Assembly: GCF_022811645.1 (NCBI RefSeq)
Contig: NZ_CP094535.1
Location: 112,476 to 176,475 of the forward strand
Length of the DNA: 64,000 bases
Reading direction: 5' to 3'
DNA from: Hymenobacter monticola
GTDB lineage: Bacteria; Bacteroidota; Bacteroidia; Cytophagales; Hymenobacteraceae
A model generated the notes under the pieces. That model was not told the origin of the DNA. It saw nothing but the letters and a program-made list of their open reading frames with translations, and made no database searches. Shown here in pieces: positions 40,906 through 54,446 of this stretch. Position 1 is the stretch's first letter, and each line of letters starts with the position of its first letter. The translations under genes were made by a program, and so were the position numbers.

Positions 40906-40943
40906 GGGTGTTGTTAAACAAATAGGGCAAAACCTCCGACTCG
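40906..40943. repeat. 38-bp terminal inverted repeat, left end of miniature element
   Basis: Begins GGGTGTTGTTAAACAAATAG and ends CCTCCGACTCG. Differs from the intact element's right repeat by one base in the GGGCAAAA section. Confidence 0.85.
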
Positions 40944-40946
40944 GCC

Positions 40947-41140
40947 TTACGTCGGTTTACTTGACGACTGCCAAGTAGCAATCAGGTGCATGTCAAACGA
41001 GGCTTCGGCCAGCAGTGGCTGGTGGAGATGTCGCACTCGCTGTACAGGTTCAAGTGGTGGTAGGAAAGCACGGCAAAGGGCGAAATTGTGCCCAGCGTGG
41101 CAATTTGCTGCTCGGGCGGCGGCTAGGCCAGGTGCTAGGA
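40947..41140 (-). pseudogene. 3' remnant of Tn3-family transposase gene
   Basis: On the minus strand it encodes a degraded version of the C-terminus of the intact transposase: LLAEASFDMHLIATWQSSSKPT against LPAEAPFDMDLIAAWQPPSKPA. Several codons upstream are altered, including in-frame stops (TAG at about 41125). It stops abruptly at the deletion junction near 41140. Confidence 0.82.
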
Positions 41141-41286
41141 GCAAGCCCAAAGGCGGGGTGCAGCCGTTGATGTACGACGCCGACCGCGAGCACATTCCGC
41201 ACCGGCACGCGCTGAGTGTGCCGCTGGCCACCATTGTGGCAATGCACCTGAAGTACGGCAAGTACCTCTCGCTGAAAAACTACTAG

Positions 41287-42138
41287 AGCGTGTTAATGAC
41301 TAATTGAAGAAATTCGGGGATGAAAAAGCCCCATTCTGGTTATCCGAGCGATGTAAGCGACGAAGAGTGGGCGTTTGCCGCGCCCTATCTGACGTTGATG
41401 AATGAAGCGGCCCCGCAACGGGAACACCCGCTGCGGAGCTTGTTCAATGCCGTGCGTTATTTGGCCCGCACCGGGGTGCCGTGGCGTTACCTGCCGGGCG
41501 ATTTTCCGGCCTGGCCGGCGGTCTGCCAGCAGTTGCGGCACTGGCTGGACGCCCGCTGTTTCGAAACGATGGTCGACGAGTTGCGCCACCTGCTGCGCAC
41601 GGCCCAGGGCCGTCCGGCTGAGCCCTCGGCCGTCTTGCTCGGCAGCCACACGCTGCAAAGCACCCCAGAAAGTGGCCACCGAGCGGGCTATGACGGCGCC
41701 AAGCGGCGCAAGGGCAGCAAGGTGCACATCGCCGTGGACACGCTCGGGCACTTGCTGGCGGCGCTGGTCACGCCGGCCAACGAACAAGACCGTGCCCAGG
41801 TGGCGGCCCTGGCCGAAGAGGTACAGGCCATTACGGGGCAATCGGTCGCCCTGGCCTACGTCGACCAAGGCTACACGGGGCAGGAGCCCGCGCAGGCCGC
41901 AGCGGAGCAGGGCATTGCCCTGCACGTGGTGAAATTACCCGCCGCCAAGCGGGGCTTTGTGTTGCGGCCCAAGCGCTGGGTCGTGGAGCGCTCCTTCGCC
42001 TGGGCCGCGCGGTTCCGACGATTGGCCCGGGACTATGAACGCCTCACCACGACCTTGGAAGGCATGCACTACCTCTTCTTTGCCTGCTTAATGCTCGTCA
42101 AAGCAAATCGTAGTAACCTGCTAAGTCATTAACACGCT
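41287..42138 (+). mobile_element. IS5-family insertion sequence (IS427-like)
   Basis: About 852 bp with inverted ends AGCGTGTTAATGACT / AGTCATTAACACGCT, flanked by CTAG at 41283-41286 and 42139-42142. Because CTAG is palindromic the exact boundary is ambiguous by two bases, with TA as an alternative duplication. One transposase gene fills it. Inserted into the resolvase remnant of the miniature Tn3 element. Confidence 0.85.
41320..42132 (+). CDS. IS5-family transposase with first catalytic Asp changed to Gly
   Basis: A 270-residue DDE transposase. Residues 1-95 form the DUF4096-like N-terminal region (YPSDVSDEEWAFAAPYL, RTGVPWRYLPGDFPAW). The catalytic core retains YDGAKRRKGSKVHIAVDTLGH, Asp182 in AYVDQGYTG and Glu223 in RWVVERSFAWAARFRRLARDYE. 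The expected first catalytic Asp, normally in an I/L-D-S-R-T-L-Q-S motif, is Gly108 (LLGSHTLQS; codon GGC at 41641-41643, one transition from GAC). The protein is otherwise full length and in a single frame, so this copy is probably catalytically dead but recently mutated. Confidence 0.88.
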   Translation: MKKPHSGYPSDVSDEEWAFAAPYLTLMNEAAPQREHPLRSLFNAVRYLARTGVPWRYLPGDFPAWPAVCQQLRHWLDARCFETMVDELRHLLRTAQGRPAEPSAVLLGSHTLQSTPESGHRAGYDGAKRRKGSKVHIAVDTLGHLLAALVTPANEQDRAQVAALAEEVQAITGQSVALAYVDQGYTGQEPAQAAAEQGIALHVVKLPAAKRGFVLRPKRWVVERSFAWAARFRRLARDYERLTTTLEGMHYLFFACLMLVKANRSNLLSH

Positions 42139-42189
42139 CTAGGCTAAAATGCAGCGCCAGCCGAACCAGAACGCGTCTGCGTAAGGGGG

Positions 42190-42227
42190 CGAGTCGGAGG
42201 TTTTACCCTATTTATCTAACTGTGTCT
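42190..42227. repeat. right terminal repeat of miniature element (degraded)
   Basis: CGAGTCGGAGGTTTTACCCTATTT matches the intact element's right repeat exactly; the distal 14 bases (ATCTAACTGTGTCT) have diverged from GTTTAACAACACCC. The degraded end may no longer be a transposase substrate. Confidence 0.75.
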
Positions 42228-42651
42228 TTCGTTGAAAGGCAGCCGATTAGGGAACGAAGTCACCCTATAGCCGATTTTTTTTAGAAATAGATAAAAAAAT
42301 TTGCTTTATTCTCTTGTTATTCGTTTGTTTACAACAGCTTCTACCTATTAACAAGGTTTTCACCTTGCCTGGGGCCGTGGAACCCCTCCTTCACCCTTGC
42401 TGCAGCCTTGTGCTGTGCGCGTAATCGAAATACCTGATTCATCAGGGCAGTTTCAGTTCGCACTGGTGGCACCTGCCGGCATCCGGCCCAAGCCATATCT
42501 ACCCTTTATGCGTCCAGCAGGAGTCTTTCCTTAAGATTTCTCACCCTTTTTTCTGGTTCAAATAGGTGGCTACCTATCACCCGTCGCAGTAATGCGCTGG
42601 GAAGAGGCTTGCCTATATTCCTGATGCTTCTATTTCATAGTTCTCCGCGTT
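42228..42651. other. A+T-rich leader region upstream of the peptide cassette
   Basis: About 420 bp without a supportable gene. Poly-A/T tracts around 42272-42330 contrast with the GC-rich chromosome and probably contain the promoter for the VKOR-fusion gene. I do not see a convincing match to the Bacteroidota -33/-7 promoter consensus. Confidence 0.5.
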
Positions 42652-44277
42652 ATGAACCTGAATGTCTCTCAGAAAAACGCCTTGCACGGCCTCGAAATGT
42701 TGCTTCGCTTGAGCAAGGTGCCGGTTACCCGAGCCACGTTACAGGAAAAGCTGTGGGAGCACCCGGATTTCCCGAGTCTGACCTCCCTGAGCGACACGCT
42801 GGATGAATTGAAAGTAGATAATGTTGCCGCGCACCTGACCCTAGACCAGTTGCCTGAAATCCCGTTGCCGGCGCTGGTCTACCTCGGCAGCGAAGGCGGT
42901 TTCTTTGCTCCCGTGCGTGCCACGGCGGCTAATGCCGTAGAATGGTGGCACCACAAGCGAGGGTGGCAAACGGAAACCCTAGCCCGCTTCAATCAGCAGT
43001 GGAACGGCGTAGCGCTGCTAATTGAGCCTACGGAACGGTCGGGGGAGGCCAACTATGAACAAAGCCGAAAAAAACAGTTGATTGAAAGCCTGCGCCTGCC
43101 CTTCGTCGCGCTTAGCTTACTGGTTTGCTTGGGCGTGTGGATAAGTGGCTTCCAGGGTGTTCCGGCCGGGACATCGCTGTATTGCTTGCTATTACTGTTA
43201 AAACTGTCGGGCCTGTCGGTCAGCAGTCTGCTGGTTTGGTACAGCTTGGATGCGGATAATCCTTTCCTGCGCAGCATCTGCCAACTAAACGCCCGCACCA
43301 GTTGCAGCAATGTGTTGACTACCTCCGCAGCCAAGCTATTTGGCTGGCTCAGTTGGGCGGAAGTCGGGCTATTTTACTTCGGCGGCGGGCTACTGGCCCT
43401 GTTACTCTTTCAAAAAAACACGGCCGTCTTGTACCCGATACTATTCGGGCTGACCGTTGTGGCGCTACCCTATACGTTTTGGTCGGTTTATTATCAACAG
43501 TACCGCGCCCGGCAGTGGTGCGTGTTGTGCCTGACGGTACAGGGCCTACTGTGGTTAGAATTTGGGGCCCTGCTATATTTCCAGCGCCGCCTGTACTGGC
43601 CGGTGGACTTCGGTTTTACCGAAATAAGCCGCTTGCTCGCAGGCTTTCTGTTGCTGCCGGCTATGTGGGTCCTGCTGAAGCCCGTCTGTAGCCAAGCCCT
43701 GCGCACCGATGACTTGCAGCGCAGTCTACAAAAAATCAAGTTCGACCCCAACTACCTAGAATCATTAGGCCGGCGGGCGCAGCCACTACCGCACATTTTC
43801 ACGGGAATGCAAGTGCTCACGCTGGGAAATCCAGAAGCTTCCGATACCCTTACAGTCATCACCAATCCGACTTGTTCGCTGTGTTCACGGGCGCACCTAG
43901 AATTAGAAACGTTAATGACTGAACAGGAAGATTTGAAATGCCAGATTATCCTAGTGGCCACGAACCGACCCGGTGATGCAGGAACATTTGTGGCCCACCG
44001 GATTCTAAGTCAATCCATTGAGGGAGCGCTAACAGCCTTACACGATTGGTACACGACACCACGCGTGGAAAGCTGGCTTAAAATGATTCCACAAGGTGAA
44101 GCAACAGAAGAGGGAATGGCACAACTTGGCCTGCATCGGCAATGGTGCAAGTTAGCCGGGGTGAGTGCAACGCCCACTATATTTTTTAATGGGATTGAGA
44201 TTCCGCGATACTACACAATTTCGGAGTCCAAACAATTGCTAAAATTTCTTAAAGATAGAGTTGGCCAGCTCTCTTAA
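42652..44277 (+). CDS. VKOR-thioredoxin fusion with N-terminal degenerate C39 domain
   Basis: A 541-residue membrane protein with three parts. Residues 1-135 resemble the C39 peptidase fold (HPDFPSLTSLSDTLDELKVDN, then GFFAPV and WNGVALLIEP), but the catalytic Cys and His are absent, so it probably only binds the leader. Residues about 140-340 form a vitamin K epoxide reductase domain with five hydrophobic helices, loop cysteines Cys210 and Cys218, and redox pair Cys290-V-L-Cys293. Residues about 375-541 form a DsbA/thioredoxin-like domain with Cys408-S-L-Cys411 and cis-Pro in SATPTIFF. The set is what is needed to form and pass on disulfides. It lies about 200 bp upstream of a six-cysteine peptide gene, its likely client. 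Confidence 0.85.
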   Translation: MNLNVSQKNALHGLEMLLRLSKVPVTRATLQEKLWEHPDFPSLTSLSDTLDELKVDNVAAHLTLDQLPEIPLPALVYLGSEGGFFAPVRATAANAVEWWHHKRGWQTETLARFNQQWNGVALLIEPTERSGEANYEQSRKKQLIESLRLPFVALSLLVCLGVWISGFQGVPAGTSLYCLLLLLKLSGLSVSSLLVWYSLDADNPFLRSICQLNARTSCSNVLTTSAAKLFGWLSWAEVGLFYFGGGLLALLLFQKNTAVLYPILFGLTVVALPYTFWSVYYQQYRARQWCVLCLTVQGLLWLEFGALLYFQRRLYWPVDFGFTEISRLLAGFLLLPAMWVLLKPVCSQALRTDDLQRSLQKIKFDPNYLESLGRRAQPLPHIFTGMQVLTLGNPEASDTLTVITNPTCSLCSRAHLELETLMTEQEDLKCQIILVATNRPGDAGTFVAHRILSQSIEGALTALHDWYTTPRVESWLKMIPQGEATEEGMAQLGLHRQWCKLAGVSATPTIFFNGIEIPRYYTISESKQLLKFLKDRVGQLS

Positions 44278-44473
44278 TTCCCTTTCACCTTTTAAACAGT
44301 TTTCATTATGAGAAACTGCTTTTATTCCGATGCCTAGTAGGCGTTGTGGTGCTGGTTCGCAAAGTACTGATACCAAGCAGTACATTTCAAGCCAGCGTTT
44401 CGCTTTGCGAAAACAGCCTTATCGGCGTTTCCAATGCGCAGGAGTCAATTTCAAACCTTAATCAAACAACACA
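44278..44473. other. short intergenic region before the peptide gene
   Basis: About 195 bp. It contains an 8-codon frame from ATG 44308 (ending TAG), too short to support. Presumably it carries a promoter for the peptide gene. Confidence 0.4.
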
Positions 44474-44725
44474 ATGAAAACTTCCCTAAAAAGCTTTTGC
44501 AACGGCAGCAACATCAGTTTGCTCTCCAGAGAAGAACAGCGTCAAGTTAAAGGTGGTCTAATAATGTGTACTACAACTTACGCTGATGATTCAGGGTCCC
44601 ATTATATCTCCGGGTCCTGCGGCGGTAGCAGTGCTGCTCAGTGCCAGCAATATGCTGAGAGTTCTTATGGTGGTATGTGTGACTCAGACCCCTCTTGCAT
44701 TTATACTTCTACTACGTGTCGTTAG
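44474..44725 (+). CDS. double-glycine leader peptide with six-cysteine core (bacteriocin/natural-product precursor)
   Basis: An 83-residue precursor. Residues 1-28 form a leader ending LLSREEQRQVKGG, matching the Bacteroidota GG-leader pattern (Leu-Ser, acidic pair, Val-x-Gly-Gly). Cleavage after Gly28 would release a 55-residue core starting LIMCTTTYADD. The core has six Cys (32, 49, 57, 69, 75, 82), rich Ser/Gly/Tyr and almost no Lys, so three disulfides are likely; Cys9 lies in the leader. Neighbours supply a disulfide-forming VKOR fusion upstream and a C39 peptidase/exporter downstream, the enzyme that removes such leaders. The core is unlike any family I recognise; antibacterial or signalling roles are both open. 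Confidence 0.88.
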   Translation: MKTSLKSFCNGSNISLLSREEQRQVKGGLIMCTTTYADDSGSHYISGSCGGSSAAQCQQYAESSYGGMCDSDPSCIYTSTTCR

Positions 44726-44738
44726 TCCTAAAAGTATA

Positions 44739-44756
44739 GCACTACTTATGTAGTGC
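44739..44756 (+). other. small hairpin just after the peptide gene
   Basis: GCACTAC, TTAT, GTAGTGC: a perfect 7-bp stem 13 bp past the stop codon, with no T-run. May stabilise the peptide mRNA 3' end. Confidence 0.35.
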
Positions 44757-44877
44757 CACTTACTGTTGGTACTGACTGAACATAGCGGCATTGTACTTAG
44801 TAGAATGTTAATCCCTTGGCCGCCGATAAGTCGACCAATATTACATTTTATAAGGTTGCCAATGTGTCAATCCTTAT

Positions 44878-44927
44878 TAAGAAAACAATACTAGCATTGT
44901 GTTTAATGCTAGTATTGTTTTCTTAAT
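44878..44927. terminator. perfect 22-bp-stem bidirectional terminator
   Basis: TTAAGAAAACAATACTAGCATT and its exact complement around a GTGTTT loop, giving an A-rich left and T-rich right side. It separates the peptide gene from the thioredoxin and exporter genes, so precursor and machinery are probably transcribed separately. A second short inverted repeat (TGATAAA/TTTATCA, 44932-44950) follows. Confidence 0.85.
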
Positions 44928-45108
44928 TATTGATAAATAATAGTTTATCATTATTATACTTGTGTAAGTTACGTAATTAGCGCTACGCACCGCTTGTATT
45001 TCAGCTTAAGAAAAAATCTTTACTTAAAGAAACCTTTTTTTCAGCGCATGGGGGTGGGTAGTACGTGGCATAAGATATAACTGAAGATAATTCAAACTTC
45101 CCTTGCCC

Positions 45109-46245
45109 ATGAAGAATTACTTGATGGTTTTACTATTAATACCGAGCCTAGCTGCTGCGCAAACACCCATCCACTTCGTACTGAAGGGCCACATGGGTCC
45201 AAGTACTTACCGCGGCGCGCCTATCTACGTCTATCTGCGCAGCGGGAGAATGTTGGATTCTGCGCTAGTAGAGAAAGGGCGGTTCGAACTGAATGGCACC
45301 GTGGACGAACCCACTAAAGGATTTCTCTCTATGAAGCGGAATAGCGGGGATATGTCGGACTCCAAGGCGGTCTTTTACCTTGAACAAGGCACGCTCGTTT
45401 TCACCAGTCCCGATTCGCTCAAGCACGCGCACGTGGGCGGCACGCCGCTCACGGACGCCTGGCGGACGTTATGGACGGCAAAACAACCGATTGTTCAGCA
45501 GCTCAAGGTTCTGGAAAACGAGTCACGGGCCGCTACGCTGGCCCAGCAGCAGTCCCTGGCGTTCCAGCAAGGCCTGCGGGCCCGGCACGCGGCTACGGTG
45601 CGGGCAGGCGTCCGCTTAGATTCTGCGTTCGTCCGCGCGCACCCCACTTCGCCCATCAGCCTATATGTATTGAACAGCTTGAGCAAGGACTCCACGAATG
45701 CTGCGCTGGTGACGGCCCTGCTCCCGACCCTCTCGCCTGCGGCGTTTACCAGCCCCCGAGCCGAGGAAATTCGGACGACAATCCAGCAGAACGCGCGGGG
45801 CATTAAGTCCGAGACGGCGCTGAAGGTGGGGCAACTGGCCCCCAACTTCACCCAAGCCACACCCGATGGCCGGCCAGTATCGCTCGCGGATTACCGCGGC
45901 AAATACGTGCTGGTCGATTTCTGGGCCAGCTGGTGCGGGCCTTGCCGCCAGGAAAACCCGAACCTAACCAAAGCCTATCACAACTACAAAGACAAGAACT
46001 TCGACGTGCTCGGCGTATCGCTCGACGAGGCCAAGGACCGGGCCAAGTGGGTGAAGGCCGTTCAGGATGACCACCTGCCCTGGACGCAAGTGGCGGAGTT
46101 GAAAGGTTGGCAAAGCAAAGCGGCCACCGCATATTTCATCAAGGCCATTCCGCAGAATTTCTTGGTGGACCCCACGGGTAAAATTATCGCCATGAATTTG
46201 CGTGGTGAGGAGCTGCCGAGGGCACTGGCGCGCTTAATTAAGTAG
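45109..46245 (+). CDS. TlpA-like periplasmic thioredoxin (DUF4369/AhpC-TSA type)
   Basis: A 378-residue secreted thiol-disulfide protein. The signal peptide is MKNYLMVLLLIPSLAAAQ. Residues about 20-230 are a DUF4369-like N-terminal domain (FVLKGHMGPSTYRGAPIYVYLRSG); residues about 240-378 are a thioredoxin fold with KYVLVDFWASWCGPCRQENPNL, active Cys276 and Cys279, and cis-Pro in KAIPQNFLVDP. The frame begins at TTG 45103; ATG 45109 is preferred. Within the peptide cassette it may reduce or isomerise wrong disulfides in the six-cysteine product, or keep the exporter's peptidase Cys reduced. Similar proteins also occur alone in Bacteroidota, so its role here is inferred. Confidence 0.88.
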   Translation: MKNYLMVLLLIPSLAAAQTPIHFVLKGHMGPSTYRGAPIYVYLRSGRMLDSALVEKGRFELNGTVDEPTKGFLSMKRNSGDMSDSKAVFYLEQGTLVFTSPDSLKHAHVGGTPLTDAWRTLWTAKQPIVQQLKVLENESRAATLAQQQSLAFQQGLRARHAATVRAGVRLDSAFVRAHPTSPISLYVLNSLSKDSTNAALVTALLPTLSPAAFTSPRAEEIRTTIQQNARGIKSETALKVGQLAPNFTQATPDGRPVSLADYRGKYVLVDFWASWCGPCRQENPNLTKAYHNYKDKNFDVLGVSLDEAKDRAKWVKAVQDDHLPWTQVAELKGWQSKAATAYFIKAIPQNFLVDPTGKIIAMNLRGEELPRALARLIK

Positions 46246-46372
46246 ATACAAACCTCATGTAGGGTACAGTAAATTACTAGTGGTCTTGTTCTTATTGGCC
46301 GACAAAGTCCCGTCTAGTTAATATGAATGCTTCAGTCGAGCCTAAGGGATTGCACAAGTTAACCAGCATGCC

Positions 46373-48730
46373 ATGAGCAAATTCACGTACTATCAGCAGC
46401 TCGACATCATGGACTGCGGGCCTACTTGCTTGCGCATGGTTGCCAAGCATTATGGCCGGCACTTCACGGCGCAGTCGTTGCGGGAGCGGGCCCAGATTGG
46501 CAAAGATGGGGTGTCGCTGCTGGGCATTGCGGAGGCTGCTGAAGCTATTGGGTTTCGGTCACTGGGTGCGAAAGTGTCGTTTGAAAAGCTGGCCAAGGAA
46601 GCCCCGCTACCCTGCATTGTGCATTGGCAACAGAATCACTTCGTGGTGGTGTACGCGATTACCGGAGCGAGCAACAAGTGGTTAAACAATATCCGAGGCG
46701 GCTATAGAAGGTCCAGTGACACCGACATTCTCCGGTCTCAAGTACCCACCTTTGACTTCCCTGCCGGGGCCGAAGCTATTTTTTCAACCCGGCCAGCGCC
46801 AGAGGCCGTTAAAAGTCCGGGTACCGGCTCACGCCGAGGCACCGTTTACGTAGCCGACCCTGCCCGGGGCCTAGTTTCCTACACCGCCGAAGAGTTTTGC
46901 GAGGGATGGCTCTCCAACCGCACGGAAACGCAAAGTGAGGGCGTGGCGCTGCTTCTGGAGCCTACTCCTGCTTTTCACGAGCAAGACGACGAGCAAGCTG
47001 TCAGCTACAGTTTTGGGCGCGTGCTGGGCTACTTGGGGCAATACAAACAGTTACTGGTGCAACTGCTACTAGGCCTGGCCGTGGGAAGCGGGCTGCAACT
47101 GCTGGTACCCTTCCTGACGCAATCAGTCGTGGACATTGGCATTAACACCCAGAACGTGCCGTTTATCTACTTGGTCCTGGGTGCTCAATTGATGCTGATG
47201 GTTGGGCGGCTGATGATGGAATTCATTCAAAGCTGGCTCTTGCTACACATCAGCACCCGCGTTAACCTCAGCATCCTGTCTGATTTTCTAATCAAGTTGA
47301 TGCGCCTGCCGCTCTCGTTCTTCGATACCAAGCGTTTCGGCGATATTATGCAGCGCGTCGGCGACCACCACCGCATTGAGACATTCGTAACGGGGCAGGC
47401 AGTATCCCTGCCCTTCGCACTGGCGAACATATCGATATTGAGCGTGGTAATAGCTTTATACAGCTTACCAATTTTTGGCGTGTACGTTGTCTCTAACTTG
47501 CTGTATGCAGGTTGGATAATACTGTTTCTACGCCAACGCCGCAAGCTGGACACTAAGCGCTTCGACCTGTCGGCCCAGAGTCAGAGCGCCTTGGTGCAAC
47601 TTATTCAGGGGATGCAGGAAATTAAGCTGGCGGGCGCGGAGCGGCAAAGCCGCTGGGCGTGGGAACGGCTCCAGGCCCGCTTGTTCCGGTGGCAGATGAA
47701 GAGCCTGAGCCTAGGCCAGTACCAGCAAGTAGGCGCCTTTCTGATTAATGATGGCAAAAACATTCTGATTACGTTTCTGGCCGCGCAGGCCGTTATCAAT
47801 GGGCAGTTGACGCTGGGGGCCATGCTGGCCATGCAGCAGCTCATTGGCCAGCTCAATGGCCCCGTAAACCAATTAGTGGGGTTATCCCAAAGCTTGCAGG
47901 ATGCCAAAATAAGCCTGGAGCGACTTAACGAGATTCATACCCTCGCAGATGAAGAGCCAGCTGGACACCCTACTATTCAGAAACTGCCCGCTGGTGGTCT
48001 GGAAGTGCACCAACTCTCGTTTCGCTACCCCGGCGCTGGCAACGAACCGGTTCTGAGCGCGGTAGATTTACAAATTCCAGCAGGCAAGACAACAGCAATT
48101 GTGGGTATGAGCGGCAGTGGCAAGACTACCTTGCTCAAGCTACTGCTCAAGTTTTATGACCCCAGCCAGGGCGAAATTCGGCTGGGCGAGGCGGCGCTCC
48201 GTAATATTAGCCATGCTGCGTGGCGGGCACAGTGCGGGGTAGTAATGCAGGAAGGGTTCGTATTTTCCGATACCATTGCCCGCAACATCGCCGTGGGTGC
48301 TGAGCGCATCGATGCCCAAAAGCTCGAGCATGCCGTGCGAGTAGCCAACCTGCGCGAGTTTGTGGACGGGCTGCCGTTGGGGCTGCATACGAAAATTGGA
48401 ACTGAAGGAACCGGCATCAGCCAGGGCCAGAGACAGCGCATTCTCATTGCCCGGACCGTTTACAAAGACCCGCAATTCATTTTCTTCGACGAGGCAACCA
48501 ATGCGCTGGACGCCACCAACGAGGCTATTATCATGAAGAACCTAGACGAGTTCTTTCGCGGCCGAACCGTCATTATCGTTGCTCACCGGCTCAGCACGGT
48601 TTGTCACGCCGACCAGATTGTGGTGCTTGATAAAGGAACGTTGATTGAGGGCGGCACGCACGCCGAGTTGGTGGCCCAACGGGGCGCTTACTGGCAACTG
48701 GTGAAAAATCAACTTGAACTGGGCTCCTAA
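46373..48730 (+). CDS. C39-peptidase-containing ABC exporter (PCAT type)
   Basis: A 785-residue fused peptidase-permease-ATPase that cleaves double-glycine leaders and exports the core. The C39 domain (1-165) has catalytic Cys15 in MDCGPTCLRMVAKHYG, His89 in QQNHFVVVY and Asp in VADPARG, but a longer-than-usual stretch (about 100-145, NNIRGGYRRSSDTDILRS) separates His and Asp. Six membrane helices span about 215-490. The ATPase has Walker A GMSGSGKTTLLKLLL, signature ISQGQRQRI, Walker B FIFFDEATNALD and switch His in VAHRLS. It follows the thioredoxin by 127 bp and precedes the HlyD-type gene by 15-33 bp. Natural substrate: presumably the peptide at 44474. Confidence 0.94.
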   Translation: MSKFTYYQQLDIMDCGPTCLRMVAKHYGRHFTAQSLRERAQIGKDGVSLLGIAEAAEAIGFRSLGAKVSFEKLAKEAPLPCIVHWQQNHFVVVYAITGASNKWLNNIRGGYRRSSDTDILRSQVPTFDFPAGAEAIFSTRPAPEAVKSPGTGSRRGTVYVADPARGLVSYTAEEFCEGWLSNRTETQSEGVALLLEPTPAFHEQDDEQAVSYSFGRVLGYLGQYKQLLVQLLLGLAVGSGLQLLVPFLTQSVVDIGINTQNVPFIYLVLGAQLMLMVGRLMMEFIQSWLLLHISTRVNLSILSDFLIKLMRLPLSFFDTKRFGDIMQRVGDHHRIETFVTGQAVSLPFALANISILSVVIALYSLPIFGVYVVSNLLYAGWIILFLRQRRKLDTKRFDLSAQSQSALVQLIQGMQEIKLAGAERQSRWAWERLQARLFRWQMKSLSLGQYQQVGAFLINDGKNILITFLAAQAVINGQLTLGAMLAMQQLIGQLNGPVNQLVGLSQSLQDAKISLERLNEIHTLADEEPAGHPTIQKLPAGGLEVHQLSFRYPGAGNEPVLSAVDLQIPAGKTTAIVGMSGSGKTTLLKLLLKFYDPSQGEIRLGEAALRNISHAAWRAQCGVVMQEGFVFSDTIARNIAVGAERIDAQKLEHAVRVANLREFVDGLPLGLHTKIGTEGTGISQGQRQRILIARTVYKDPQFIFFDEATNALDATNEAIIMKNLDEFFRGRTVIIVAHRLSTVCHADQIVVLDKGTLIEGGTHAELVAQRGAYWQLVKNQLELGS

Positions 48731-48745
48731 AATCAGCCTAGCTCA

Positions 48746-50056
48746 ATGCTAGCACTATTTCTTATGAATCAGAGCACTACATTTGTTGAACTGCGGTCAG
48801 AAGAGGTGCAAGAGCTGCTAGCTCGCCCTCCGCGGTGGCTACTGCGCTGGGGAATCACCGTAGTATTTCTGATTCTGCTCTCGGTATTTGCTGGCGCCTG
48901 GGTTATTCATTACCCTGACCTAGTAAGAGCTTCCTTTAAGCTCACCACTGCCAACGCGCCAAAAGCGGTGCTGGCCCGCACTGACGGTAAAATTGTCCGT
49001 TTATTTGTGCAAGAAGGCCAACTGGTGCCACCTGGCGCCACACTGGCGTATTTGGAGAGCACTGCCCGCCACGACGAGGTAATACATTTGGCGCGGGAGT
49101 TAAAAGCAGCTTGGGCGGTCTGTCGGCGGGGCAATTTGGAAGGGTTACGGCAAATCAATCTGTCGGCTTATCATCAACTCGGCGAGTTGCAAAACGATTA
49201 TCAGACTTTTGAGCAGCGGCATATACAACTGCGCGCTTATCTAGCAGATGGTTTCTACAGCAAGAAGCGAAAGCTGTTGCAACTGGAGCTGATTGACTTA
49301 CAGACATTAGCGCAACAACAACGACAGCAACGAGTGCTACAGGCTCGGGATGCCACGCTGGCGCAAGAAGACTATGAGACGCAACGGCAACTGGCCGAGC
49401 AAAAGGTAATTCCTGAACTGGAATTTAAGCGCGAGGAAAGCAAGAATATCGCGCGACAACTGGCTTACCAGCAAACCGCTTCAGTCTTAGTTAATAATGT
49501 GACTGCCCAGCGCGCCAAACAGAAAGAAATACTGGAATTAGACAAACAGGTAGCGGAAGAACGCGACCAGTTTTTACAGGCGTTAAATACCTTGCAAAGT
49601 GCTGTCAACTCTTGGCAAGCCAGGTACGTGTTATCGGCTCCCGTAAGTGGCCGGGTATTCTTTCCCGGCATAATTCAGGAAAACCAAGTCGTCGCGACCA
49701 GCCAAGAGCTATTTTATGTTGCTCCGCCGAGTGCAACTTATATCGGAGAATTGCGAGTACCGCAGCAGAATGCGGGCAAGGTGCAGGTCGGGCAGGATGT
49801 GTTGGTAAAGTTTGCCGGCTTTCCCTATCAGGAATATGGTGCAATACGAGGCCAGATTACGGCCATTGCTAACATTTCGTTCAAGGACAGCATCTTTCTA
49901 GCGCGGGTGGCATTGCCAGCAGGCTTGAAAACCACTTATGGCAAGTCGCTGGCTTATAGAACTGGTATGACGGCCTCAGCAGATATTATCACCGCCGATA
50001 ATCGCTTGTTAGAAAAGCTATTTTATCAACTTCGTAAAGTAACCGAAGGGCAGTGA
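48746..50056 (+). CDS. HlyD-family secretion adaptor
   Basis: A 436-residue adaptor linking the ABC exporter to the outer membrane. One N-terminal membrane helix (about 34-56, WGITVVFLILLSVFAGAWVIHY) follows a cytoplasmic segment (ELRSEEVQELLARPPRW). Half lipoyl motifs (KIVRLFVQEGQLVPPGATLAYLES and ARYVLSAPVSGRVFF) flank a long coiled-coil hairpin of about 110-280, rich in Gln. The C-terminal barrel ends near IITADNRLLEKLFYQLRKV. An alternative start is ATG 48764 (MNQSTTFVELRSEE), which fits family members slightly better. No outer-membrane TolC is adjacent; the TolC at 31236 or another must serve. Confidence 0.88.
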   Translation: MLALFLMNQSTTFVELRSEEVQELLARPPRWLLRWGITVVFLILLSVFAGAWVIHYPDLVRASFKLTTANAPKAVLARTDGKIVRLFVQEGQLVPPGATLAYLESTARHDEVIHLARELKAAWAVCRRGNLEGLRQINLSAYHQLGELQNDYQTFEQRHIQLRAYLADGFYSKKRKLLQLELIDLQTLAQQQRQQRVLQARDATLAQEDYETQRQLAEQKVIPELEFKREESKNIARQLAYQQTASVLVNNVTAQRAKQKEILELDKQVAEERDQFLQALNTLQSAVNSWQARYVLSAPVSGRVFFPGIIQENQVVATSQELFYVAPPSATYIGELRVPQQNAGKVQVGQDVLVKFAGFPYQEYGAIRGQITAIANISFKDSIFLARVALPAGLKTTYGKSLAYRTGMTASADIITADNRLLEKLFYQLRKVTEGQ

Positions 50057-50074
50057 TGAGCTAAGTTGTGCAAC

Positions 50075-50367
50075 CTAGCTCACGGGATAAGCGTGGCGGG
50101 TAAAGAGCGTGAGCGCCTGGGGGTCGATGTTGTTCTCTTGGCAAATTTTGGCAGCCAGCGTTACCTGGCACTGTGCGAGGCCGGCGCCGTTTTCCGCCAA
50201 CTCGGTTGCGACGTCCCACCCCTGCTCAGGATGAACGACCAACTCGCAACGGGTCGGGGCCTGCTTCACGTCGTCGTATAGGTGGAATGGCAGTGCATGC
50301 GTGACGCCGGCCAGCGTAACTAAGTTTGTTCCCAGGAAAGGAAAGCAGATGGTAGGGAAAGGTAGAT
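50075..50367 (-). pseudogene. open frame of uncertain coding status at the cassette edge
   Basis: A minus-strand frame ending at TAG 50075-50077 that reads like protein (ALPFHLYDDVKQAPTRCELVVHPEQ, LAENGAGLAQCQVTLAAKICQENNI), but no ATG, GTG or TTG start was found near its beginning. It probably represents a decayed or 5'-disrupted gene. No family recognised. Confidence 0.4.
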
Positions 50368-50493
50368 TTAAGGGAGGCACACCAGCCAGCCCTGACGCAG
50401 AAAACGCTCGCGCAGCTCGTCGGCCGACGTGTCCTCCCCGATGAATTGCAGCCACTCGGCCACGGTGGTCAGGTCCGGGGCTTCGGCCAGAAA
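50368..50493 (-). pseudogene. C-terminal fragment of an unknown gene cut by the Tn3 element
   Basis: From the transposon boundary the minus strand reads FLAEAPDLTTVAEWLQFIGE...RERFLRQGWLVCLP and ends at TAA 50368-50370. The codon pattern is protein-like and GC-rich. The remainder of the gene is not found across the element (the right flank belongs to a different frame), consistent with rearrangement. Confidence 0.5.
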
Positions 50494-50531
50494 GGGTGTT
50501 GTTAAACAAATAGAGTAAAACCTCCGACTCG
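50494..50531. repeat. 38-bp terminal inverted repeat, left end of Tn3 element
   Basis: Starts GGGTGTTGTTAAACAAATAG; matches the right repeat except A for G at the position after TAG. Confidence 0.9.
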
Positions 50532-50536
50532 GCACG

Positions 50537-51175
50537 CTAGGCCGGTGCGTTCAGGCCCGGCTGGCGCTGCAGTTTGGCCAGGTAGTTTTTCAGGGAGAGG
50601 TACTTGCCGTACTTCAGGTGCACGTCCACGATGGTGGCCAGCGGCACGCCCAGCGCGTGCAGGTGCAGGATGCGTTCGCGGTCGGCGTCGTACATCGACG
50701 GCTGCACCACGCCCTTGGGTTTGCCCAGCACGATGCCCTGCTCGCGCCGCACCCGCAGCCCTTCCTTCGTGCGCTCGGACACGAAGTCCCGCTCCAGCTC
50801 GGCCAGCATGGCGAAAATGGTGAGCAGGATTTTGTGGGTCATGTCGCGGTGGTTCTGCGGGTCCAGGTCCAGGCCCTGCTTGACCAGAATCAGCCGGCAG
50901 CGCTTGTGGTGAATCAGCTCCTCAATCAGCGCCAGCACTTCGCGCAGCGAGCGACCCAGCCGCGAGAGCTCGGACACAATCACGGTGTCGCCGGCGGCGA
51001 CCTTGGCCAGTAGCTCGGGGAGGCGGCGCTGCCCGGCGGTCCGGCGCGAGGACATCTCGACCTCAATCCACTCGTCCAGGGTCCAGCGGTGCTCGACCAG
51101 GTAGCGGGCGATGAGGCTCTTTTGGCTCTCGGCCGATTGGGCGCTGGTCGAGACGCGGACGTAGCCAAAAATCAT
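50537..51175 (-). CDS. tnpR: serine resolvase/invertase of the Tn3 element
   Basis: A 212-residue site-specific recombinase. The catalytic Ser9 is in MIFGYVRVSTSAQSAES; SELSRLGRSLREVLALIEEL carries the conserved Arg/Ser-Arg; FAMLAELERDFVSERTKEGL is the long E-helix; the C-terminal HTH resembles LHLHALGVPLATIVDVHL. ATG 51175 was chosen because the upstream frame crosses the res region. It resolves cointegrates formed by the transposase. The same C-terminus occurs, damaged, in the miniature copy at 41141-42184. Confidence 0.93.
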   Translation of the reverse strand: MIFGYVRVSTSAQSAESQKSLIARYLVEHRWTLDEWIEVEMSSRRTAGQRRLPELLAKVAAGDTVIVSELSRLGRSLREVLALIEELIHHKRCRLILVKQGLDLDPQNHRDMTHKILLTIFAMLAELERDFVSERTKEGLRVRREQGIVLGKPKGVVQPSMYDADRERILHLHALGVPLATIVDVHLKYGKYLSLKNYLAKLQRQPGLNAPA

Positions 51176-51313
51176 GGGCAAAACGGGGTGGTTAGCGATA
51201 AGGTAAAAGGTCCTCGTAAAGGTACCGGTTTTCGATACCTTTACACGCACGTTAACCCTATCAAACGACGGTAGGGATAACGGTCGTTTACACCATCGCA
51301 TTTTGGGCACCTT
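51176..51313. promoter_or_regulatory. res-like region between divergent tnpR and tnpA
   Basis: 138 bp with two inverted repeats that could be resolvase subsites: GTAAAGGTA (51216-51224) with TACCTTTAC (51236-51244), and AAACGAC (51263-51269) with GTCGTTT (51283-51289). Divergent promoters must also lie here. Role inferred from position. Confidence 0.65.
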
Positions 51314-54300
51314 ATGGCCACGCACCTGCGGATTCACATGGGCAAGGAGCGTGAGCTATACGAGCAGCCCCCGCTGGTGCCGGCGACCGAGCAGGCGCGG
51401 GTATTTGCCGTGCCGGCATGGGCCGATGTTCACCTGGCCCGGATGCTGGCGCCGGCTAACCGCGTCGGGTTTCTGTTGCAACTGGGCTACTTCCAGATCA
51501 GCCAGCGCTTCTACGTGGCCACGCGCTACCACGCGGCCGATGTGGCCTTCGTGGCGCGGCAGTTGGGCGTGGCCCCGGCCGAGTTCGCGCCCGCCCGCTA
51601 CGCCGATGCCCGGTACTACGCCCATCAGCAGCTCTTGTGCGAGCAGTTGGGTATTGCGCGTTTCGACGCGGCCGCCACGGAGCGTTTGTACCAGGAGGCC
51701 GTGCGCCTGAGCAGCCAGCACCTCAAGCCGTCAACTGTCTTCGACTACCTGGTGCTGTTTCTGCACGAGCACCGGCTGGAGCTGCCCACCTACAACACGC
51801 TGGCCGACCTCATCACGCGGGCCCTGCTCGCGTTTGAGAAACGGCTGCTCCACCGCTTGCAGCAGCACCTGCAGCCCGGCGAGCAGCGCTTGCTGGACCG
51901 GCTGCTGGCCGCCGACGACCCCGACGCCCGCGAGGCGGATGCGGACCGCCGCTACCCGCTCACCTTTCTCAAGCGCATCCGCCAGGGCCTGCGGGCCGGG
52001 GAAATCCGCGAACGGGTCACCCATTTCGCCTCCCTGCGGCAGCTCTTTGAGCAGCTGCAGCCGCTCTGGCAGCGGTTGCGCCTCTCCGACCAGGCCATCA
52101 CCTACTACGCCGAGTACGTGCTGCGGGCCCAAGCCGCGCAACTCTACCGCCGCGATGAGCGGCGCTACCTCTACCTGCTCAGCTTCGTGGTGCACCAGTA
52201 CTACGAGCTGGGTGATGCCCTGGTCGATACGCTGCTGCAAACCATGACCAGCGCCGCCAATCAGTGCCGCGAGCAGGTCAAGGAGACGCTTTACCAGCAA
52301 CGCACCGCCACCCAGCAGCTGACCAGCCAGGTCACCGGCCGCGGCTACCGGCACCTGCAAGCCCTGACCCAGATTCGCGCCCTGGTCGACGCGCCCGACG
52401 TGCCGGCCGAGCAAAAGCTCCAGCGCATCGACGCGCTGCTGCAGCGCCACCAGGTCACGGCCGCGCAACTCAGCGAAGACCACCAGCAGCTGGAGCAATT
52501 GCGCCAGGCCACCGAGCAGCAGGCCGGAGAGGCGCTGTTTCACGAGGCGCTGGCCGCCGCCTCGTTGCGCCTGCAGACTAAGCTCGGGACCCTGGTCAAA
52601 GCGCTGGTCGTGGACGAAGCAACCACCCGCGCCGACCTGTGGCGGGCGGTGCAGTACTACCAGCAGCACGACGGGCACCTGGGCGCGCAGGTGCCGCTGG
52701 ACTTTCTCTCGCTCACGCAACGGGCCTACGTCCTCGATGCGCAGGGCCGGCTGCGCCCATCGCTCTACAAAGCGCTGCTGTTTCTGGAGATGGCCAAGGC
52801 CGTCAAGTCTGGCCAGCTCAACTTCACCTGCTGCTACCAGTACCGGGCCTTCGAGCACTACCTGCTGCCGGCCGCGCAGTGGGCCAAGCAGCGCGAAGCC
52901 CTGCTGGAACAGGCCGGGCTAAGTGCCTGGCGCGACTTTGCCGCGGTGCAAACCACGCTTCAGGCGCAGCTGCAGGCCCAGTTTACCGCCACGAACGCCC
53001 ACCTGAGCGGGGCCGACAACCCGCACGCGCACCGCACCCCGGCCGGGCGCTACCGTCTCACCACGCCCCGGTTGCCGGCCGAGCAGCCCCGCCTGCCCGC
53101 CCACCTGTTTCCCCGCCACCGGGTGGTGCCCTTGCGCGAGGTGCTCACCAGCGTGGCCCGGCTCACCCAATTTGACACGGCTTTTGGCTCGTTGCCCAGC
53201 AAGCACGCCCGCACGCCGCCACCCTTATCGCAGCTGCTGGCCGCTCTGGTCGGACTCGGCTGCAACTTGGGCCTGCGCCGCTTGGCCCAGGTTGCGCCGC
53301 AGGTGGACGAAGCGGCCCTGCAGCGCCTGGCCAGCACCCATTTCTCGCTCGACAACCTGCGCCAGGCCAACGAGCTGATTCTAAACTTTACGCGCCAGCT
53401 GCGCCTGCGCGAGACCTTTCGGCTCTCGCCCGATGTGCTGCATAGCAGCAGCGACGGGCAGAAATACGACCTGGCCGTGGACTCGCTCGGCGGCAGCGCT
53501 TCCTTCAAATACTTCGGCAACCGCCGCGGCCTGACGGCCTACTCCTACGTGGACGAAACGCTGCTTGTCTTCGACTCGACCGTGTTCAGCGCTGCCGACC
53601 GCGAGGCCACGCACCTGCTGGAAGGGCTGTTGCGCCACGCCGTGCGGCCCACCGACGTGCACAGCACGGACACGCACGGCTACACGGAAGTCATTTTCGC
53701 CGTGACCCGCATGCTGGGCATCGCCTACGAGCCGCGCATCCGCCAGCTCACCAACCAGCAGCTCTACAGCTGGGAGCCCGTGGCCGCCCACCGCCAGCTG
53801 GGGCAGACGCTGCTGCCCGACGCGCGCCTCGACCCCGAACGCATCGCCCGGCACTGGGACGAGGTCCTGCGCCTGGTCGTCACCCTGAAGCTGCGTCACA
53901 GCGAGGCCTCGCGTCTGTTCGGCCGCCTCAACTCCTACGCCCGCCAGCACCCGCTTTACCGGGCCCTGAAAGAGCTGGGCCGGCTGGTTAAAACCGAGTT
54001 TCTGCTGCGCTACGTAGACCAGGTCGAACTGCGCCAGCGCATCCAGAAGCAACTCAACAAGGGCGAAAGCGCCCACCGCCTGGCCCACGCCGTCTGGCAC
54101 GGGCGCAACCAGGAGTTTCACGCCGCCACCCGCTCCGAGCAGCTGGTGGCCGAGACCTGCAAGCGCCTACTGATGAACGCCATCATCTGCTGGAATTACC
54201 TGCACCTCTCCCAGCACCTGGCCCGGCTGCCGCCCGAGCAGCAGGCCGCCACCCTGGCCACGCTCTCGCCCTTCGCCGTGCTCTCCTACCGCCACCTGAA

Positions 54301-54403
54301 CCTGCACGGCGAGTACGACTTCTCCGACCACCCCCTGCCGGCCGAAGCCCCATTTGACATGGACTTGATTGCCGCCTGGCAGCCGCCGAGCAAACCCGCG
54401 TAA
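51314..54403 (+). CDS. tnpA: Tn3-family transposase
   Basis: A 1029-residue replicative transposase. The N-terminal region (residues 1-170) is the DUF4158-like DNA-binding part (YFQISQRFYVATRYHAADVAFVARQLG). The catalytic DDE domain occupies about 590-1000: SSDGQKYDLAVDSLGGSASFKYFGNRRGLTAYSYVDE contains the first Asp, STDTHGYTEVIFAVTRMLG the second, and HAVWHGRNQEFHAATRSEQ the Glu region. Length is normal. It ends 5 bp before the right terminal repeat. Appears intact. Confidence 0.95.
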   Translation: MATHLRIHMGKERELYEQPPLVPATEQARVFAVPAWADVHLARMLAPANRVGFLLQLGYFQISQRFYVATRYHAADVAFVARQLGVAPAEFAPARYADARYYAHQQLLCEQLGIARFDAAATERLYQEAVRLSSQHLKPSTVFDYLVLFLHEHRLELPTYNTLADLITRALLAFEKRLLHRLQQHLQPGEQRLLDRLLAADDPDAREADADRRYPLTFLKRIRQGLRAGEIRERVTHFASLRQLFEQLQPLWQRLRLSDQAITYYAEYVLRAQAAQLYRRDERRYLYLLSFVVHQYYELGDALVDTLLQTMTSAANQCREQVKETLYQQRTATQQLTSQVTGRGYRHLQALTQIRALVDAPDVPAEQKLQRIDALLQRHQVTAAQLSEDHQQLEQLRQATEQQAGEALFHEALAAASLRLQTKLGTLVKALVVDEATTRADLWRAVQYYQQHDGHLGAQVPLDFLSLTQRAYVLDAQGRLRPSLYKALLFLEMAKAVKSGQLNFTCCYQYRAFEHYLLPAAQWAKQREALLEQAGLSAWRDFAAVQTTLQAQLQAQFTATNAHLSGADNPHAHRTPAGRYRLTTPRLPAEQPRLPAHLFPRHRVVPLREVLTSVARLTQFDTAFGSLPSKHARTPPPLSQLLAALVGLGCNLGLRRLAQVAPQVDEAALQRLASTHFSLDNLRQANELILNFTRQLRLRETFRLSPDVLHSSSDGQKYDLAVDSLGGSASFKYFGNRRGLTAYSYVDETLLVFDSTVFSAADREATHLLEGLLRHAVRPTDVHSTDTHGYTEVIFAVTRMLGIAYEPRIRQLTNQQLYSWEPVAAHRQLGQTLLPDARLDPERIARHWDEVLRLVVTLKLRHSEASRLFGRLNSYARQHPLYRALKELGRLVKTEFLLRYVDQVELRQRIQKQLNKGESAHRLAHAVWHGRNQEFHAATRSEQLVAETCKRLLMNAIICWNYLHLSQHLARLPPEQQAATLATLSPFAVLSYRHLNLHGEYDFSDHPLPAEAPFDMDLIAAWQPPSKPA

Positions 54404-54408
54404 CCGGT

Positions 54409-54446
54409 CGAGTCGGAGGTTTTACCCTATTTGTTTAACAACACCC
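54409..54446. repeat. 38-bp terminal inverted repeat, right end of Tn3 element and of the compound element
   Basis: CGAGTCGGAGG to GTTTAACAACACCC, reverse complement of the left repeats at 50494 and 40906. Confidence 0.9.

What the first reader, a model, noticed from the sequence alone, without database searches (positions are those of the whole stretch)
42652..50056. Self-contained cassette for a disulfide-rich, double-glycine-leader secreted peptide
The order is VKOR-thioredoxin fusion, six-cysteine peptide with a GG leader (44474-44725), TlpA-like thioredoxin, C39-peptidase ABC exporter, HlyD adaptor. Seen directly: the leader end VKGG, six core cysteines, intact C39 Cys15/His89 in the exporter, and three redox CxxC pairs (290-293, 408-411 and 276-279). 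Known: C39 exporters cut GG leaders; VKOR and DsbA-like domains make disulfides. Inference: the peptide is oxidised to three disulfides and exported as a bacteriocin-like toxin or signal. The 55-residue core matches no class I recognise, so this may be an undescribed peptide family.
Basis: partly seen in the sequence, partly recalled or inferred. Interest (0 to 1): 0.87.

Follow-up and report, generated by a model that had tools for sequence, protein, structure and literature searches.

The report
Cassette making a secreted disulfide-rich peptide
A five-gene cassette, probably mobile, appears to make, cross-link with sulfur bridges and secrete a small peptide, using an oxidising enzyme that seems to carry its own docking domain for the peptide's tag and may work inside the cell rather than outside it.

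Summary
In detail: five genes at the stated places, a 28-residue VKGG leader, a 55-residue six-cysteine core, an exporter with C15/H89. The VKOR protein is a C39-like/VKOR/DsbA-like fusion; its N-terminal domain has the C39 fold without the catalytic cysteine. The fusion marks a recurrent system (24 of 395 genomes of the class). GG-leader peptides at VKOR+ loci have a median of 6 core cysteines (75 distinct cores) against 2 at VKOR- exporter loci (64 cores); 65 of 73 VKOR+ cores with two or more cysteines have an even number. Leaders are shared, cores are not. An extra helix before the VKOR bundle and a reversed positive-charge pattern (42 of 42 distinct fusions, 1 of 27 ordinary VKORs) predict that the VKOR active site, the thioredoxin domain and the dead C39 domain all face the cytosol. 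Proposed mechanism: the dead C39 domain docks the leader so that disulfides form before export. Oxidation, docking and export are inferred; killing or signalling is untested; the cassette's periplasmic TlpA fits this less well. Closest known: bacteroidetocins. My searches found no paper joining VKOR to GG-leader peptides.

The parts
42652..44277 (+). C39-like/VKOR/DsbA-like fusion (541 aa): dead C39-like domain 11-128, extra helix TM0 135-166, VKOR bundle with Cys 210, 218, 290, 293, Trx domain with Cys 408-411
   Evidence: Pfam; alignments; AlphaFold2 pLDDT 89.4, pTM 0.76; hhalign; Foldseek
44474..44725 (+). precursor peptide: 28-aa leader ending VKGG, 55-aa core with six cysteines (calculated reduced mass about 5723 Da, pI about 4.05)
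   Evidence: no Pfam/PDB match
44876..44927 (.). perfect 23-bp inverted repeat with 6-nt loop after the peptide gene, terminator-like
45103..46245 (+). DUF4369-TlpA-like protein with an N-terminal signal-like sequence (by eye) and WCGPC, probably periplasmic
   Evidence: Pfam; sequence
46373..48730 (+). C39-peptidase ABC exporter (PCAT type), Cys15 and His89 intact
   Evidence: Pfam; alignment A2
48746..50056 (+). HlyD-family adaptor
   Evidence: Pfam
40906..42220 (.). degenerate Tn3-type remnant (inverted repeats 40906-40946 and 42187-42220) holding an IS4/5-type transposase gene 41320-42132
50494..54446 (.). Tn3-family element: inverted repeats, resolvase 50537-51337 (-), Tn3 transposase 51314-54403 (+)

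Best explanation
The cassette makes a six-cysteine secreted peptide whose disulfides are installed by a dedicated quinone-linked oxidase. Proposed order: (1) the precursor's GG leader is bound in the cytosol by the catalytically dead C39-like domain of the VKOR fusion, which works as a substrate-docking domain; (2) the DsbA-like domain of the same protein oxidises core cysteine pairs and is re-oxidised by the VKOR bundle, which passes electrons to quinone; by its charge pattern the whole unit faces the cytosol; (3) the active C39 domain of the ABC exporter cuts after VKGG and the exporter with HlyD and a chromosomal TolC-type channel sends the core out; (4) the periplasmic TlpA-like protein corrects or reduces wrong bonds. 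The product is most likely an interbacterial toxin. Shown: genes, domains, loss of the C39 catalytic cysteine, association of the fusion with multi-cysteine cores, reversed charge pattern. Inferred: leader docking, compartment, electron flow, export, activity. My odds by step: oxidised and exported peptide 0.85; the fusion is its oxidase 0.8; C39-like domain docks the leader 0.7; active site cytosolic 0.6; toxin rather than signal 0.6.
For: No Cys at the aligned catalytic position in 32 of 41 rows that have residues there; 9 rows are gapped there. C39-leader contacts at -4, -7, -12 and substrate recruitment by the dead domain of HlyB: passages of PMC6363468; hydrophobic at -12 in 74, at -4 in 74, at -7 in 44 of 75 VKOR+ leaders. 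Cores: 75 distinct at VKOR+ loci, median 6 Cys; 64 at VKOR- exporter loci, median 2, 18 with none; per-locus p 9e-12; even in 65 of 73 and in 46 of 50 after clustering at 40%. Held-out named plasmids: 10 of 11 peptides even, 9 of 11 with six. Topology: TM0 in 42 of 43 rows, six helices in the model; K+R density higher on the active-site side in 43 of 43 fusion rows (42 distinct) against 1 of 27 ordinary VKORs. That positive charges decide VKOR insertion is discussed in PMC11208910 (passages). The genome has no DsbB hit and no other VKOR hit. TlpA at 12 of 17 VKOR+ and 1 of 60 VKOR- family loci.
Against: No expression or biochemical data. Charge counting is a prediction; on a stricter test (loop 3-4 against loops 2-3 plus 4-5) 32 of 42 fusion rows are inverted, 8 tie and 2 are opposite, and the window's own protein is one of the 2; with all loops the window has 14 K+R in 88 residues against 4 in 43. 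TM0 is the least confident part of the model (about 68-80 pLDDT). The linked TlpA protein looks periplasmic, which fits periplasmic folding as well or better. A reducing cytosol would work against the bonds. VKOR- cores are also mostly even when they have cysteines (29 of 42). 26 of 32 leader seeds came from VKOR+ loci and the first of them were picked with a two-cysteine filter, so the comparison is not fully blind. -7 in the window leader is Gln. Controls for topology are mostly from outside the class.
Confidence: 0.5

Rival explanations
1. Ordinary orientation: VKOR active site, Trx domain and C39-like domain are periplasmic; the peptide is oxidised in the periplasm during or after export, with TlpA as reductase or isomerase, and the C39-like domain binds the exporter or the core rather than the leader.
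For: All VKOR-type oxidases described as general bacterial systems in the passages I saw work in the periplasm; TlpA is linked to VKOR and looks periplasmic; window protein fails the stricter charge test.
Against: Charge pattern of 42 of 42 distinct fusions is opposite to 26 of 27 ordinary VKORs; it needs a 130-residue N-terminal domain without signal peptide to cross the membrane; GG leaders are removed on the cytosolic side by C39 exporters (established knowledge), so a periplasmic leader receptor would have nothing to bind.
Confidence: 0.3
2. The peptide is a secreted signal, not a toxin.
For: A sensor kinase and a LytTR regulator lie upstream of the VKOR gene on both Emticicia plasmids; no immunity gene is apparent in the window cassette.
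Against: No regulator among the five cassette genes or the seven neighbours scanned; up to 15 peptides with very different cores at one locus (L132, leader identity 60%, core 24%) looks like diversification against varied targets; bacteroidetocins also lack immunity genes (PMC6671954 passages).
Confidence: 0.25
3. The cysteines carry another modification (thioether, radical-SAM cross-link) and the VKOR fusion serves something else.
For: 16 of 65 VKOR+ peptides match TIGR04149 (a label for rSAM-modified peptides), one each matches microviridin and pinensin models; a LanC-family gene lies in the Parabacteroides locus.
Against: None of the 12 window genes scanned is a radical-SAM or Lan enzyme; TIGR04149 here is most simply leader similarity.
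Confidence: 0.07
4. Decayed or silent cassette carried by transposons.
For: Flanked by Tn3-type repeats and a degraded remnant.
Against: All five frames are open and the catalytic residues of the exporter and the six redox cysteines of the fusion are intact.
Confidence: 0.05

Closest known systems
Bacteroidetocins (Coyne et al. 2019, PMC6671954; passages seen)
   Same: Bacteroidota; GG leader cut by a C39-ABC exporter; cysteine-containing peptide; thiol oxidoreductase gene in the locus, needed there for full activity; no immunity gene found
   Different: Their leaders are 15-16 aa, mature peptides 35-50 aa with at least two (A and B: four) cysteines, and a separate five-TM protein of unknown function; here leader 28, core 55, six cysteines, and a C39-like/VKOR/Trx fusion. 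The paper's text has no occurrence of VKOR, and 'vitamin K' only in media. Whether its five-TM protein is VKOR-like was not tested.
C39-like domains (CLD) of type I exporters such as HlyB (PMC6363468 passages)
   Same: C39 fold without catalytic cysteine, in a secretion system
   Different: Here fused to a redox enzyme, not to an ABC exporter; the active C39 is on the exporter next door
VKOR-Trx fusions of bacteria (PDB 4nv5/4nv6 and ordinary VKORs of the phylum)
   Same: VKOR bundle with four cysteines plus Trx-like domain
   Different: Extra N-terminal C39-like domain, extra TM0 and opposite charge pattern
Inverted VKOR of Aeropyrum pernix (Hibender et al. 2017; only the title seen, in the reference list; paper not held; content recalled)
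   Same: a VKOR acting on the cytosolic side
   Different: general protein disulfides in a hyperthermophilic archaeon, no peptide leader or C39-like domain as far as I recall
NCBIfam leader_Chryseo NF047798, CCPGW NF047792, TIGR04149
   Same: match 21, 7 and 16 of 65 VKOR+ peptides
   Different: The window peptide reaches none of them (NF047798: 13.6 bits against a cut-off of 23.5)

Membership tests
C39-peptidase ABC exporter | C39 + TMD + NBD with catalytic Cys and His | tested here: met
GG-leader secreted peptide | leader of the L-S-x-x-E-[MLQ]-x-x-[VI]-x-G-G type beside a C39 exporter | tested here: met
   Leu at -12, Gln at -7, Val at -4
Bacteroidetocin | leader of 15-16 aa and mature peptide of 35-50 aa | tested here: not met
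   28 and 55 aa against the values in PMC6671954
Bacteroidetocin | thiol oxidoreductase and C39-ABC in the locus | tested here: met
Bacteroidetocin | five-TM protein | tested here: inconclusive
   no separate such gene in the five-gene cassette; the VKOR fusion has six predicted helices
Bacteroidetocin | sequence similarity to bacteroidetocins A-D | not tested
   their sequences were not on hand
Class IIa bacteriocin | YGNGVxC motif | tested here: not met
   absent from the core by inspection; motif as given in PMC6671954
NCBIfam leader_Chryseo NF047798 | score over curated cut-off 23.5 | tested here: not met
   13.6 bits
TIGR04149 rSAM-modified peptide | model match and radical-SAM partner | tested here: not met
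   no match for the window peptide; no radical-SAM among 12 window genes scanned
VKOR oxidase | PF07884 match and four redox cysteines | tested here: met
   55.7 bits, cut-off 27.5; C210, C218, C290, C293 in all 43 fusion rows
VKOR oxidase, usual orientation | positive charges on the loops opposite the active site | tested here: not met
   prediction only, and weak for the window protein
C39-like domain (CLD) | C39 fold, catalytic Cys lost | tested here: met
C39-like domain (CLD) | binds the substrate | not testable with these tools
   needs a binding assay

The most novel reading that the evidence does not exclude
Leader-guided disulfide formation in the cytosol: a pseudo-C39 domain fused to an inverted VKOR-Trx oxidase holds GG-leader precursors by the leader and builds two to four disulfides before export. 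This would be a new kind of peptide-maturation enzyme, serving a hypervariable peptide arsenal in Bacteroidota.
Probability: 0.4. Interest if true: 0.88.

Novelty: new variant of a known kind. Interest (0 to 1): 0.72.

Why it matters
If right, one gene (the C39-like/VKOR/Trx fusion) is a genome-mining handle for a large, hardly annotated set of disulfide-rich secreted peptides in Bacteroidota, and a redox enzyme that recognises a leader and works on the cytosolic side would change where and how peptide disulfides are thought to be made. It also offers a possible tool: leader-tagged peptides oxidised in a laboratory host. The topology is directly testable with reporter fusions.

Tried and rejected
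Peptide homologs: one BLAST-type search over 204 family genomes gave 15 matches besides the window's own, all weak (E 0.02-0.097); ten of those loci were screened for a GG leader with cysteines and none held a convincing precursor. Pairwise comparison of the window core with 74 VKOR+ cores, and again with eight cores from named plasmids added, gave only weak similarities; the best named one is on Emticicia pEMTOL02 (20 residues, pairwise E 7e-4), not enough to call a family. The genome-contig scan with the VKOR fusion returned one locus, Hymenobacter sp. IS2118. Considered and set aside: radical-SAM or lanthionine modification (no such gene in the window genes scanned). A first AlphaFold2 model with 16 rows was weak at TM0; a second with 41 rows was better. 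My first control set for VKOR topology missed minus-strand hits (15 controls); corrected to 27, with one exception (L154) and one unused locus (L163 failed the profile). The 43 fusion rows hold one duplicate (L146 = L130), so 42 distinct proteins. In the family exporter set 60 of the 61 remaining places were fetched (G072:C39 left out). VKOR+ loci without a counted peptide: 6 of 42; three of these (L035, L043, L050) do show one but failed the start or overlap rule; L044, L045 and L128 show none. L051 holds only an N-terminal fragment of the fusion and counts as VKOR+ but VKOR-. Window leader cysteine C9 unexplained. Outer Tn3 repeats have similar but not identical flanking 5-mers (ATAAA, AATAA), so a single composite insertion is not shown.
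Full report
The precursor has 28 leader residues ending VKGG and a 55-residue core with cysteines 32, 49, 57, 69, 75 and 82; a seventh cysteine, C9, is in the leader. Exporter C15 and H89 are intact.

Setting. The window is part of a 176,475-base contig of a 6.12-Mb, seven-contig genome, probably a plasmid (inference). The closest named relative of the VKOR fusion, 66% identical, is in Hymenobacter sp. IS2118, so the host is probably Hymenobacter (inference). G+C is 42-57% over the cassette and mostly 61-69% in the flanks, though 35-37 kb is also low. A degraded Tn3-type remnant (40906-42220) lies to the left and a Tn3 element with resolvase and transposase (50494-54446) to the right. Mobility is suggested, not shown.

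The fusion is a docking domain plus a disulfide generator. Profile comparison of 17 fusion N-termini with 12 exporter C39 domains gives probability 96.4, E 1.1e-9. None of the 32 rows (of 41) that have residues at the catalytic cysteine position holds a cysteine; nine rows are gapped there; three of 41 have a histidine near the catalytic histidine position. AlphaFold2 with 41 rows gives pLDDT 89.4, pTM 0.76. C210, C218, C290, C293, C408 and C411 are present in all 43 fusion rows. In the passages that I read of PMC6363468, C39 holds the leader through residues -4, -7 and -12, and the dead C39-like domain of HlyB recruits substrate. Among 75 leaders at VKOR+ loci -12 and -4 are hydrophobic in 74 each, -7 in 44.

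The fusion marks a system. It was found in 15 of 204 family genomes and, by profile, in 24 of 395 genomes of the class, 12 of 196 genera (both counts include the window's genome). Exporter control: the N-terminal 219 residues of the exporter were found in 60 of 204 family genomes, giving 60 fetched loci without a VKOR fusion. One leader profile (32 seeds, 26 from VKOR+ loci) was run over 103 loci: 4 of 16,169 shuffled small ORFs pass, 165 real ones do. VKOR+ loci (42, of which 36 gave a counted peptide) have 75 distinct cores with a median of 6 cysteines; VKOR- loci have 64 distinct cores with a median of 2, 18 with none (per-peptide p 8e-21, per-locus p 9e-12). Of VKOR+ cores with at least two cysteines 65 of 73 have an even number; 46 of 50 after clustering at 40%. 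VKOR- cores with at least two cysteines are also mostly even, 29 of 42. Four of the eight odd VKOR+ cores come from one locus, L131. Relatedness is not corrected for beyond the clustering. Leaders are shared while cores are not: 15 peptides at L132 have median leader identity 60% and core identity 24%. TlpA accompanies the fusion in 12 of 17 family loci against 1 of 60; that one, L052, is the exporter contig of the same IS2118 genome.

Named examples. tblastn of the fusion in 72,556 plasmid records found six records: two Emticicia oligotrophica plasmids, one Spirosoma oryzicola, two Parabacteroides distasonis, one Aureibacter tunicatorum. pEMTOL01 has the order VKOR, small ORFs, TlpA, C39-ABC, HlyD, TolC; pEMTOL02 a longer version with two VKOR genes. 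In the records examined for peptides 11 GG- or AG-leader peptides were seen (one further ORF had no leader and was dropped); they have 6, 6, 4, 6, 6, 6, 6, 6, 7, 6 and 6 core cysteines. Those that are annotated are called hypothetical protein, except one called bacteriocin; the Spirosoma one has no listed gene. The second Parabacteroides record was not examined for peptides.

Which side of the membrane. Ordinary bacterial VKORs face the periplasm. The fusions have one more hydrophobic helix before the VKOR bundle (42 of 43 rows; helix 135-166 in the model), so N-terminal domain, active site and Trx domain should be on one side. Counting K+R, loops on the active-site side are richer than the opposite loops in 43 of 43 fusion rows (42 distinct proteins; 26 of 26 clusters at 50% identity) but in only 1 of 27 ordinary VKORs of the phylum. 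Means, fusion against ordinary: Cys loop 3.4/1.4, loop 2-3 0.2/2.5, loop 3-4 1.9/0.3, loop 4-5 0.55/2.9, after TM5 5.1/1.2. A stricter test using only short loops is inverted in 32 of 42 rows, tied in 8 and opposite in 2, and the window's own protein is one of the two. PMC11208910 (passages) discusses that positive charges govern correct VKOR insertion. An archaeal VKOR acting in two compartments is known by title (reference list; paper not held).

Mechanism and doubts. The simplest reading that uses all parts is leader docking on the dead C39 domain, oxidation by the fused Trx/VKOR unit in the cytosol, then cleavage and export by the C39-ABC/HlyD pair. No DsbB hit and no second VKOR hit were found in the genome, so the cassette seems to bring its own oxidase. 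Against it: the linked TlpA looks periplasmic, cytosol is reducing, and topology is only predicted. The rival with everything in the periplasm keeps 0.3. Function of the product is open: diversification suggests a toxin; kinase/LytTR genes upstream on both Emticicia plasmids keep a signal possible.

Known or new. Closest are the bacteroidetocins (PMC6671954, passages), where a thiol oxidoreductase gene in the locus is needed for full activity; leader length, core size and the oxidase type differ. NCBIfam already names parts of the peptide set: leader_Chryseo (21 of 65 scanned peptides), TIGR04149 (16), CCPGW (7); the window peptide reaches none. Paper searches in the held open-access library: vitamin K epoxide reductase + double-glycine + bacteriocin, none; VKOR + C39 + bacteriocin, none; VKOR + Bacteroidetes + thioredoxin + fusion, none; vitamin K epoxide reductase + RiPP + precursor peptide, none; three of five related terms, one paper, PMC6363468; C39-like domain + leader peptide + disulfide, one review seen in the listing only. 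Subscription papers and preprints are mostly outside that library. I therefore file it as a new variant of a known kind, with a bolder reading open.

Noticed in passing
window 40906-54446: Four Tn3-type terminal repeats bracket the cassette: outer pair 40906-40946 / 54406-54446 is 95% complementary with near-matching flanking 5-mers, so the cassette might move as part of a 13.5-kb unit.
   Followed up: partly
window 44876-44927: Perfect 23-bp inverted repeat directly after the peptide gene, a strong terminator-like hairpin separating the peptide from the TlpA-exporter genes.
   Followed up: partly
L132: 15 distinct GG-leader cysteine-rich peptides within about 9 kb of one VKOR fusion and exporter.
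   Followed up: partly
L131: Four cysteine-rich peptides with odd counts (7, 7, 9, 7) and a different leader type near a VKOR fusion; half of all odd cases.
   Followed up: no
L170, L173 (Parabacteroides distasonis plasmids) and L169 (Spirosoma): Glycosyltransferase genes, and in L170 a LanC-family gene, lie between VKOR fusion and exporter; in L173 the C39-like part and the Trx part are separate genes next to a six-bladed beta-propeller gene.
   Followed up: no
L051:8372-8812: A stand-alone 146-aa C39-like domain similar to the fusion N-terminus, near a C39-ABC and HlyD but without VKOR.
   Followed up: no
L112:8259-8773 (-): Three near-identical GG-leader peptides without cysteine (DEEPLPEPYPSKGNGG core) beside a VKOR locus.
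   Followed up: no
L154: A short VKOR (163-aa frame) without C39-like domain shows the reversed charge pattern, the one exception among 27 ordinary VKORs.
   Followed up: no
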